64,000 bases of DNA from Salinicola aestuarinus (GTDB lineage: Bacteria > Pseudomonadota > Gammaproteobacteria > Pseudomonadales > Halomonadaceae), in contig NZ_PZJP01000004.1 in NCBI RefSeq assembly GCF_003206645.1, positions 211,952 to 275,951 on the forward strand, given 5' to 3'. Below are positions 15,483 through 17,610 of this stretch, piece after piece. Each line of letters opens with the position of its first letter. The first letter of the stretch is position 1. Position numbers and translations under genes: made by a program. The notes under the pieces are model-generated. The model saw nothing but the letters and a program-made list of their open reading frames with translations. It ran no database searches and was not told the DNA's origin.

Positions 15483-16430
15483 GGCGGCGCAACGCTGGAT
15501 CTCGAGCTGCTCAGAACCTTCGAAGTGGTGGCGCAGTCCGGGTCGCTGGCCGCAGCGGCGGAGATTCGTCACCGCACGCTCAGCGCCATCAGCATGCAGA
15601 TCAAGCGTCTCGAGACGGAGCTCGAGTCGCGGCTGTTCGAGCGCGGCCCGCGAGGCGTGACGCTGACGCCGAGTGGGGAGATCCTGCAGCGCGAGGCGCG
15701 GGAGCTGATGCGGGTTCACGATACGCTGGTCAGTCGGTTCAATGGCGAGCGTCTAAGCGGACGGGTGCGCCTCGGTATTCCCGAGGACTACGCCCGCGAG
15801 CTGCTCGACGATACCCTGCCGCAGTTCATGGCGCGCTACCCCGGCGTTCTGCTCGACGTCACCACCGACACCAGCGGACGTCTGGCACGCGCGCTCAAGC
15901 GTCAGCAGGTCGATCTGGCCATTGTGCTCGACGGTGCCGAAGGGCTGGCCCACGGCGAGACGCTGTGGCATCCGGAGCCGGTCTGGGCCGCCCCCAGCTA
16001 TGGCGTGCTGCATCTCGACCCCATCCTGCCGCTCGCCGTGCACCCGATGGAGTGTCCCTATCGGCAACTGGCGATCGATGCACTGGAGGCGGAGCAGCGA
16101 CCATGGCGCGCGCTCTTCACCAGCACCAGCATTCACGCCGTGGAGAAAGCGATCGAAGCCGGCATGGCGATTGGTGTGATCGACCGCGAGCGTCTGACCA
16201 CGGCGATGCGTTCGCTGGGTGAGGCCGATGACATGCCACCGCTTCGCCAGTGCGAGGCTCGGCTGCACTTCGCCCGCGCTATCGACGCGACGTCGCGCTC
16301 CGCGGTCGAAGCGCTGGCCACGCTATTGCGTGAGCGGCTGCTGGGGCGTGGCCCGTGGCAGACCGATTCGCTCAGCGAGCGCCATGGTAACGGTCGTGGC
16401 GGAATGAAGCCGGGCGCATCGCGTCGCTGA
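15474..16430 (+). CDS. LysR-type transcriptional regulator
   Basis: 318-residue LTTR. The N-terminal winged helix is at residues 8-65 (LDLELLRTFEVVAQSGSLAAAAEIRHRTLSAISMQIKRLE) with LFERGPRGVTLTPSGE, followed by a periplasmic-binding-protein-like effector domain from about 95 to 300 and a Gly/Arg-rich tail. The start 15474 has GAGGGG seven bases ahead; an in-frame ATG at 15414 would reach toward the permease. It probably controls the adjacent divergent permease. Effector is unknown. Confidence 0.88.
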   Translation: MIEGGATLDLELLRTFEVVAQSGSLAAAAEIRHRTLSAISMQIKRLETELESRLFERGPRGVTLTPSGEILQREARELMRVHDTLVSRFNGERLSGRVRLGIPEDYARELLDDTLPQFMARYPGVLLDVTTDTSGRLARALKRQQVDLAIVLDGAEGLAHGETLWHPEPVWAAPSYGVLHLDPILPLAVHPMECPYRQLAIDALEAEQRPWRALFTSTSIHAVEKAIEAGMAIGVIDRERLTTAMRSLGEADDMPPLRQCEARLHFARAIDATSRSAVEALATLLRERLLGRGPWQTDSLSERHGNGRGGMKPGASRR

Positions 16431-16487
16431 GGGAGGGGCGACACGGGCGCAGTGTTGCCGGCGGCGGAAAGCGGCGTCGGCGAGACG

Positions 16488-16514
16488 AAAAAAAGCCGCC
16501 CTGGGCAGGGCGGC
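16488..16514 (-). terminator. rho-independent terminator of the small RNA
   Basis: Minus strand: a GC-only stem (16495-16514) followed by seven T. No protein gene ends just upstream on this strand; the AEC transporter gene stops 175 bp earlier. Confidence 0.85.
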
Positions 16515-16603
16515 ACTAAGGACCGTGACTAGCTTGATGAGGAGATAACCATGGCAGGAACCTGACATTCGCTGCTGTGGTTAGTGGCGTTTGGCGACGC
16601 CAC
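16488..16603 (-). ncRNA. candidate Fur-regulated small RNA
   Basis: An orphan transcription unit of about 115 nt. On the minus strand there is a -35-like TTGCAA (16633-16638), a 17-bp spacer holding a Fur-like box, and a -10-like TACTTT (16610-16615). The predicted 5' end near 16603 forms a GTGGCG/CGCCAC hairpin. A pyrimidine-rich segment TTATCTCCTCATC that would be single-stranded is anti-Shine-Dalgarno in character, and the RNA ends in the hairpin GCCGCCC/GGGCGGC plus seven T. The only frame starting inside it runs through the terminator without a stop, so it is not a credible peptide gene. RyhB and PrrF RNAs have this design, but I recognise no sequence homology. Expression is untested. 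Confidence 0.62.
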
Positions 16604-16610
16604 GTCTTAA

Positions 16611-16625
16611 AAGTAATCATTCTCA
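16611..16625 (-). promoter_or_regulatory. Fur-box-like site
   Basis: Minus strand TGAGAATGATTACTT against the 7-1-7 Fur motif TGATAATNATTATCA: the left half matches 6 of 7 and the right half 4 of 7. It sits between the candidate -35 and -10 of the small RNA, the position expected for Fur repression. Confidence 0.6.
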
Positions 16626-16689
16626 TTTAGCTTTGCAAGCGAAACGAGAATATTTTTTATTCGCATCTGTGCCGCGTTGCATTCCGCCC

Positions 16690-17610
16690 TCATCCCACAC
16701 CGAGTAGCGGAAGCCAGAGCGGCAGCGTGAGTCCGGCCAGCAGTGTCTGACCGGTGATGATGGCTGCCATCAGCGAGGCGTCCCCACCGAGCTGACGCGC
16801 CAGAATGTAGGCCGAGGTCGCCGTCGGCAGGGCCGCGAAGAGCAGCGCCACGTCGCGGTTCACCCCTTCCAGGCCAACGAGACTGGCGAGCCCCGCGGCG
16901 ATCAGCGGCGTCGCCAGCAGTTTGAGCGCGCTCGATACCCAGAAGGCGCGGCCCGCGCGCAGTAGCGCCTGCGGACGCAGCGCGACCCCCACGGCGATCA
17001 GCCCCAGCGGCAGCGCCGCACCGCCGAGCAGACCGATCGCGCCGGCGCTCCAGCCGGGAAGTCCCAGGCCCGTGACGTTAAGCGCGACGCCGAGGAGGCA
17101 GGCCAGAATCAGCGGGTTACGTGCCAGCGCCAGGGCGCTGCGGCCAAGCCCCGCCCGGCCCAGCGTGCCGGAGGCGATAAAGGCCAGCACGCAGAGCACG
17201 TTGGCCAGCGGGACCATCAGCGCCACGGTCACAGCGGCCACGGTCGCCCCGGTGGTCCCGTGGAGCGCCGCCGCCCCGGCGACCCCGACGTAGGTGTTGA
17301 AGCGCGCCACGCCCTGAAAGACCGAGGTGAACGCGGGGGCGTCCAGGGCCAGGGGCTTGCGGGCGAGCCAGAGACCGCCGGAGAGCAGCAGCATGCCGCC
17401 GAGCACGACGCTCGCCAGACGCAGCACCGGCACCTGATGGACGTCGGCCTCGGCCAGGGTCGCCACCAGCATGGCGGGAAACAGCAGGTAGTAGATGAGA
17501 CGTTCGAGGCGAGGCCAGAAGTCACCGCCGGGAAAACGTGCCCAACCGAGCGCTGCACCGAGTAGAATCAGCAGGAAAAGAGGCCCCAGGGCGTGGGCGA
17601 CGTCGATCAT
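16690..17610 (-). CDS. AEC family transporter (auxin efflux carrier/malonate transporter type)
   Basis: 306-residue membrane protein with about ten spans of the AEC family. Typical blocks are LERLIYYLLFPAMLVATLAE, VFQGVARFNTYVGVAGAAALHG, NPLILACLLGVALN, and the ending LPTATSAYILARQLGGDASLMAAIITGQTLLAG. The start 17610 follows AGGAAG; an open frame to 17859 has no family similarity. It is divergent from the unknown membrane protein at 17734. Substrate is likely a carboxylate, but not readable. Confidence 0.88.
   Translation of the reverse strand: MIDVAHALGPLFLLILLGAALGWARFPGGDFWPRLERLIYYLLFPAMLVATLAEADVHQVPVLRLASVVLGGMLLLSGGLWLARKPLALDAPAFTSVFQGVARFNTYVGVAGAAALHGTTGATVAAVTVALMVPLANVLCVLAFIASGTLGRAGLGRSALALARNPLILACLLGVALNVTGLGLPGWSAGAIGLLGGAALPLGLIAVGVALRPQALLRAGRAFWVSSALKLLATPLIAAGLASLVGLEGVNRDVALLFAALPTATSAYILARQLGGDASLMAAIITGQTLLAGLTLPLWLPLLGVG

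What the first reader, a model, noticed from the sequence alone, without database searches (positions are those of the whole stretch)
16488..16638. Orphan Fur-box promoter plus terminator: an undescribed iron-regulated small RNA
On the minus strand, a -35/-10 pair with 17-bp spacing holds a Fur-like box. About 115 nt later there is a textbook terminator, with no protein gene between. The RNA would have a 5' hairpin, a pyrimidine-rich UUAUCUCCUCAUC loop and a terminator hairpin, the design of RyhB/PrrF-type iron-sparing RNAs. The only ATG frame inside runs through the terminator without a stop, arguing for non-coding RNA.
Basis: partly seen in the sequence, partly recalled or inferred. Interest (0 to 1): 0.8.

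Follow-up and report, generated by a model that had tools for sequence, protein, structure and literature searches.

The report
PrrF-like iron-sparing small RNA, Salinicola
A salt-loving bacterium of the genus Salinicola carries a predicted gene for a short RNA whose sequence and folding match the PrrF RNAs of Pseudomonas; it is likely switched on when iron is scarce and would then save iron by blocking messages for iron-using proteins.

Summary
On the minus strand, 16638-16488 carries a Fur-box-like promoter, about 116 nt of non-coding sequence with two hairpins and a pyrimidine-rich core, and an intrinsic terminator. It is not an orphan. Rfam's PrrF model aligns over its full length (49.1 bits, E 4.3e-7 on the genome), below Rfam's cut-off of 90. 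A covariance model built only from Halomonadaceae copies hits 249 of 250 Halomonadaceae genomes. Among its hits elsewhere in the order, six genomes checked from one family hold above-cut-off PrrF at the same places. All 18 modelled pairs show compensatory changes. A Fur-like box is kept in 81 of 83 named copies, and the RNA persists at 12 of 61 loci without the usual neighbour gene. So "PrrF-type" is supported; "orphan" is not. My searches found no report of a native PrrF in Halomonadaceae. Transcription, iron response, Fur binding and targets are untested. Target prediction gave one fair lead (Fe superoxide dismutase start, in genera that have it), one weak (sdhC), one rejected (ectC).

The parts
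16633..16638 (-). -35-like hexamer TTGCAA
   Evidence: sequence; most relatives read TTGAC in its place; not accepted by the consensus scan
16610..16615 (-). -10-like hexamer TACTTT, 17 bp from the -35
   Evidence: sequence; weak by consensus, not accepted by the scan
16606..16630 (-). Fur-box-like array: two overlapping 19-mers, 13 of 19 (16606-16624) and 12 of 19 (16612-16630)
   Evidence: consensus recalled; at least 12 of 19 in 97.6% of 83 copies
16641..16650 (-). upstream half-box TTCTCGTTTC, roughly the mirror of AAATGAGAAT in the spacer; possible second Fur contact
   Evidence: sequence; function inferred
16488..16603 (-). predicted 116-nt PrrF-like small RNA (5' end inferred, not mapped)
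   Evidence: RF00444 over 16637-16487, 49.1 bits; model R1 over 16608-16489, 132.3 bits, the window being one of R1's rows
16584..16603 (-). 5' hairpin GTGGCGT-CGCCAA-ACGCCAC
   Evidence: 6 of 6 modelled pairs with changes on both sides
16546..16583 (-). second hairpin TAACCA...TGGTTA
   Evidence: fold; only its inner 4 pairs were modelled, 91.5% of cells paired
16522..16547 (-). conserved core TATCTCCTCATCAAGCTAGTCACGGT, the predicted target-pairing stretch
   Evidence: invariance is imposed by the search pattern; changed in G026 and G036
16488..16514 (-). intrinsic terminator, 8-bp stem and seven T
   Evidence: 8 of 8 pairs with changes on both sides, 99.8% of cells paired

Best explanation
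The minus-strand stretch 16638-16488 holds a homologue of the Pseudomonas PrrF small-RNA genes, predicted to make a non-coding RNA of about 116 nt that Fur would repress when iron is plentiful and that would, in iron shortage, pair through its UCUCCUCAUCAAGCUAGUCACGG core with the start regions of messages for iron-using proteins and so likely spare iron. Shown here: homology to PrrF by covariance models in both directions, base-pair covariation, conservation of a Fur-like box and terminator, and lack of a shared reading frame. Inferred: transcription from about 16603, Fur repression, help from Hfq, and target pairing. The best-supported predicted target in the family is the Fe superoxide dismutase start region in genera that have that gene; in Salinicola itself the targets are open.
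For: RF00444 full length, E 4.3e-7 on the genome, single place at E up to 1. R1 (Halomonadaceae rows only) hits 249 of 250 family genomes and 58 of 390 order genomes, 40 of them outside the family. RF00444 on 30 genomes (25 of those 40 plus 5 of the family): 28 match at E up to 0.01, 6 over the cut-off, all in family f21 and overlapping R1's places. Covariation: 214 double-change cells against 41.0 in shuffles, 97.6% paired against at most 60.3% when slid. Fur-like box kept. AEC neighbour missing at 12 of 61 loci while the RNA remains. Hfq and Fur genes present. Fe-SOD starts pair better than Mn-SOD starts. Length as PrrF1, 116 nt (PMC2851614 abstract passage).
Against: Score below Rfam's cut-off of 90, in the window and in every Halomonadaceae genome. 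At E up to 1 RF00444 also rings below the cut-off in 5 of 14 control genomes, at E up to 0.01 in 1 of 14. Two of the 30 genomes (G261, G370) gave RF00444 no match. The 30 were chosen mainly among R1's own hits. Weak promoter hexamers. Fur box of the window copy alone modest. No transcript or iron data. Salinicola SODs read are Mn-type yet still pair above shuffles in 6 of 8, so part of the pairing signal is generic.
Confidence: 0.87

Rival explanations
1. It is the 3' untranslated region and terminator of the upstream AEC transporter gene, and any RNA arises by processing, not from its own promoter.
For: The AEC gene lies just upstream on the same strand, ending at 16690, and is near the RNA at 49 of 61 loci with at least 1.5 kb upstream. 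The promoter hexamers are weak.
Against: 12 of 61 loci have the RNA without the AEC gene, though some of these are second copies (Cobetia L048, L077) in genomes whose other copy keeps it. The Fur-like box before the RNA is kept in 81 of 83 copies.
Confidence: 0.05
2. It is an unrelated iron RNA that converged on a PrrF-like core because both target ribosome-binding sites.
For: The core is complementary to Shine-Dalgarno sequences; the score is below Rfam's cut-off; iron RNAs without sequence likeness exist, such as BrrF (PMC7377471 passages).
Against: The alignment spans Fur box to terminator over all 150 positions; the likeness holds in both directions; families f2 and f35 have intermediate best scores of 67.7 to 84.4 bits; the likeness continues past the SD-complementary part into GCTAGTCACGGT.
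Confidence: 0.05
3. The transcript is a small messenger coding a short peptide.
For: 76 of 84 copies have at least one ATG before the core.
Against: No open frame is common to the 84 copies; 8 have no ATG, and frames differ or run through the terminator. The constraint follows base pairs.
Confidence: 0.02

Closest known systems
PrrF1/PrrF2 of Pseudomonas (Rfam RF00444)
   Same: Fur-box placement before the RNA, length (116 nt), 5' hairpin, second hairpin, core CTCCTCATCA.GCTA.TCACGG, terminator; full-length covariance alignment (lengths from PMC2851614 passage).
   Different: 49.1 bits against a cut-off of 90; core reads AAGCTAGTC where the Pseudomonas-type copy read has GGCTAATC; Salinicola has one copy in each of the 18 genomes, while nearly all sequenced Pseudomonas species have siblings (PMC4211561 passage); GCCATGG before the core is absent from the L140 copy.
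ArrF of Azotobacter vinelandii
   Same: Iron-repressed PrrF homologue said to act on sodB (named in PMC2851614 passage and in reference lists; the ArrF paper itself not seen).
   Different: Not compared here by sequence.
RyhB (enterics) and BrrF (Burkholderia)
   Same: Predicted iron-sparing role.
   Different: No RyhB among the seven lax Rfam matches. BrrF lacks its own Fur box and is probably co-expressed with hemP (PMC7377471 passage); its sequence was not compared here.

Membership tests
PrrF, Rfam RF00444 as curated | covariance score at or above Rfam's gathering score of 90 | tested here: not met
   49.1 bits. So it is not filed as a member of RF00444 as curated; it is called a PrrF-like homologue.
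PrrF-like RNAs (homology group) | full-length covariance alignment and recognition in the reverse direction | tested here: met
PrrF-like RNAs (homology group) | Fur box directly upstream | tested here: met
   13 of 19 in the window; at least 12 of 19 in 81 of 83 copies; binding itself untested
PrrF-like RNAs (homology group) | intrinsic terminator about 115 nt downstream, non-coding | tested here: met
PrrF-like RNAs (homology group) | induction by iron limitation through Fur | not testable with these tools
   needs RNA data
PrrF-like RNAs (homology group) | pairing with and repression of iron-protein messages (sodB, sdh and others) | tested here: inconclusive
   Fe-SOD starts favoured in genera that have them; sdhC not above shuffles; ectC not conserved; repression untested
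RyhB | match to the RyhB family in Rfam | tested here: not met
   not among seven matches at E up to 5 in 16300-16800

The most novel reading that the evidence does not exclude
PrrF is the ancestral iron-sparing RNA of a whole order that holds both Pseudomonas and the halophiles, not a Pseudomonas speciality. It was duplicated in tandem again and again (five copies in a row in one genome). In Halomonadaceae it gained an arm complementary to a whole translation start (Shine-Dalgarno, spacer and AUGGC), with which it silences Fe superoxide dismutase but spares the Mn enzyme.
Probability: 0.3. Interest if true: 0.6.

Novelty: new member of a known kind. Interest (0 to 1): 0.45.

Why it matters
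If true, a well-studied iron regulator of Pseudomonas is also a near-universal gene of the Halomonadaceae, hidden there because it scores below Rfam's cut-off. Halomonas bluephagenesis is engineered with the P. aeruginosa PrrF1 scaffold and Hfq (PMC12164125, PMC13414033, PMC13101641; passages), so a native PrrF could cross-talk with that tool. The many single, paired and tandem copies offer natural cases for the open question why iron RNAs come as siblings.

Tried and rejected
Ectoine synthase as target: ectC ranked first of 378 start regions in the first score, second of 379 in the refined one. Of 28 ectC loci fetched my script read 12 starts; only the window genome's own has ATGAGGAGAT, and its nearest relative has ATGAGGATG. 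Rejected as chance.

Seed search: TGATGAGGAG occurs three times in the genome (the reversed control pattern twice). One is the antisense of the RNA itself; after the other two only frames of 67 aa and at most 35 aa follow, so no target was named.

sdhC: the GTG start reads GCCGTGAATAGC, 10 of 11 against the core's complement CCGTGACTAGC, in the eight Salinicola and in nine other genomes (G018, G021, G024, G027, G029, G030, G035, G036, G058); Halotalea (G032) has ACCGTGACTA. Rank 6 of 379, but duplex energies are no better than shuffled cores. There 4 of 28 starts were not found and several others were placed at a wrong upstream codon by my script. Kept as a weak lead only.

SOD: against shuffled RNA, 7 of 9 Fe-type starts are at or below 0.015, and 7 of 21 Mn-like, six of these in Salinicola. 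With the accessibility term the Salinicola Mn-SOD ranked 298 of 378 and 351 of 379. Fe or Mn type was read from motifs that I recalled.

The first covariation count used 23 rows that I picked for clear hairpins from 48; RNAalifold gave no structure on the 48-row MAFFT alignment. I repeated the count on all 90 model matches, an alignment fitted to the model.

Full report
What is there. The minus strand between the AEC transporter gene (Mem_trans, ends 16690) and the convergent LysR gene (ends 16430) reads, 5' to 3': TTGCAA, 17 bases, TACTTT, about 116 nt with two hairpins and a pyrimidine-rich stretch, then an 8-bp terminator stem and seven T. The RNA folds at -44.7 kcal/mol, z -3.91, 0 of 200 shuffles as good. 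The promoter hexamers are weak; the sigma-70 scan reports none. The Fur box scores 13 of 19 against a consensus that I recalled; 38 of 463,622 positions in sampled DNA of the same genome score at least 13. Alone this would be only suggestive.

What it is. Rfam at gathering thresholds finds nothing in the window. With the lax threshold PrrF (RF00444) aligns over all 150 positions to 16637-16487: 49.1 bits, E 2.3e-7, cut-off 90. It is the only place in the 3.87-Mb genome at E up to 1 (E 4.3e-7). The same family rang below its cut-off in 5 of 14 control genomes at E up to 1 and in 1 of 14 at E up to 0.01, so the direct hit needed support from the other direction.

Reciprocal test. Model R1 was built from 23 Halomonadaceae rows, the window included. 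It hits 249 of 250 Halomonadaceae genomes at E up to 0.01. In 390 genomes of the order it hits 58: 18 of the family and 40 from nine other families. I gave 30 genomes to RF00444, 25 of those 40 and 5 of the family: 28 match at E up to 0.01, two do not (G261, G370), and 6 are over the cut-off. These six are all six genomes tested from family f21 (best scores 127.5 to 161.8 bits), at places overlapping R1's, for example G528:C1:3572800-3572913 by R1 and 3572768-3572917 by RF00444. Families f2 and f35 have intermediate best scores, 67.7 to 84.4. In a class-wide sample of 274 genomes R1 gave three hits outside the order, E 0.0016 to 0.0072, about what chance gives.

Named distribution. I looked up two genera, both Halomonadaceae. 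The pattern forces the core to be the same; looser evidence is that all 30 loci fetched by blastn carry the core within the 2 mismatches in 13 letters allowed. Two genomes of large genera (G026, G036) have a changed core...CTCATTGCTAGTCACGGTC. The window's genome is a Salinicola: G010, same genus, has a contig of the length of S. halophilus CECT 5903 (659543) and is 96% identical over the region.

Structure. On all 90 R1 matches in 76 sources (83 distinct rows), 18 of 18 pairs show changes on both sides (13.2 in shuffles), with 214 such cells against 41.0; 97.6% of cells pair, against 80.2% in shuffles and at most 60.3% with slid partners. That alignment is fitted to the model. The unfitted MAFFT alignment of 23 picked rows gives 34 cells against 9.1 and 98.3% paired.

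Regulation. In 83 named copies the 75 bases before the RNA hold a Fur-like box of at least 12 of 19 in 97.6%, against 12.5% of shuffles of the same regions and 1.9% of random 75-mers; at least 13 in 88%, against 2.7% and 0.3%. The two exceptions, best score 10, are in Larsenimonas (L036, L065). The genome encodes one Hfq and two Fur-family proteins. The AEC gene is missing at 12 of 61 loci with at least 1.5 kb upstream, while the RNA remains; two of these are second copies in Cobetia. The RNA is thus likely its own unit.

Coding. The 84 copies share no open frame; 8 have no ATG. In the window two ATG frames exist: 16568, running through the terminator, and 16552, ending at 16529.

Targets. Of 379 start regions from the window and 20 stretches of its genome (464 kb in all), ectC ranked near the top but its match is not kept in relatives, and sdhC ranked sixth but fails against shuffled cores. 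Across the family, Fe-type SOD starts (9 genomes) pair with the local RNA better than Mn-type ones. The median share of 179 SD-plus-ATG start regions of the window's genome that pair as well is 0.073 for Fe, 0.536 for all 21 Mn-type and 0.704 for the 13 Mn-type outside Salinicola (Mann-Whitney p 0.0029 and 0.00026; rows not independent). G021 and G029 have both types: -37.6 (Fe) and -24.2 (Mn), and -48.1 and -17.5. Against this: single Fe-type shares run from 0 to 0.168; the eight Salinicola SODs read are Mn-type by motif, and six of the eight still pair above shuffles, so part of the signal is generic complementarity to translation starts. A second, distant SOD of the window's genome (G000:C32:312292) was not examined.

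Literature. Searches: PrrF with Halomonas (7 papers), Halomonas with small RNA, iron, Fur, RyhB, PrrF with Oceanospirillales-type terms (45 papers, 10 listed), PrrF with Marinobacter, Halomonas sRNA surveys (58 papers, 10 listed), Salinicola with small RNA. None of the titles and abstract openings listed reports a native PrrF in Halomonadaceae; the library holds open-licence papers only. Of the seven papers I read passages in four: three describe P. aeruginosa PrrF1 used as a tool in Halomonas bluephagenesis; the fourth, on cheese microbes, says RyhB-like systems there are understudied. PMC4211561 (passages) treats PrrF as a Pseudomonas RNA; PMC2851614 (passages) gives 116 and 114 nt and names ArrF and NrrF as homologues; PMC13104616 (passages) reports PrrF effects on sodB and brnD in Pseudomonas.

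Verdict. A real, conserved, divergent PrrF homologue; function inferred. The kind is known; its presence throughout Halomonadaceae was not in what I could search.

Noticed in passing
L283 480-1850 (G498:C3:1547549-1548839): Five PrrF-like copies in a row, about 280 bases apart, each with its own Fur-like box and terminator, in a genome of another family of the order. G599 has three in a row.
   Followed up: partly
L033, L036, L037, L043, L056, L065, L076, L082, L102: Nine of 75 named stretches hold two exact-core copies, eight of them under 700 bases apart; model R1 finds further copies with a changed core in L048, L052, L076 and L077.
   Followed up: partly
L033, L082, L038, L048, L077: In these copies the Fur-like box lies upstream of the -35 instead of in the promoter spacer (read), as if the operator had moved.
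   Followed up: no
window 16531-16560, plus strand: The opposite strand reads like a ribosome-binding site and start codon (GATGAGGAGATAACCATGGCAGGAACCTGA, four codons): the mirror of an RNA arm complementary to translation starts.
   Followed up: partly
L245 near 15882, minus strand (ectC): The ectoine synthase start region has ATGAGGAGAT, a 10-nt match to the core's complement, in the window's genome only among the 12 starts read.
   Followed up: yes
L058, L070, L073 (Kushneria): The AEC neighbour gene is not found near the RNA in these Kushneria loci while the FKBP gene next to it in the window is still nearby.
   Followed up: no
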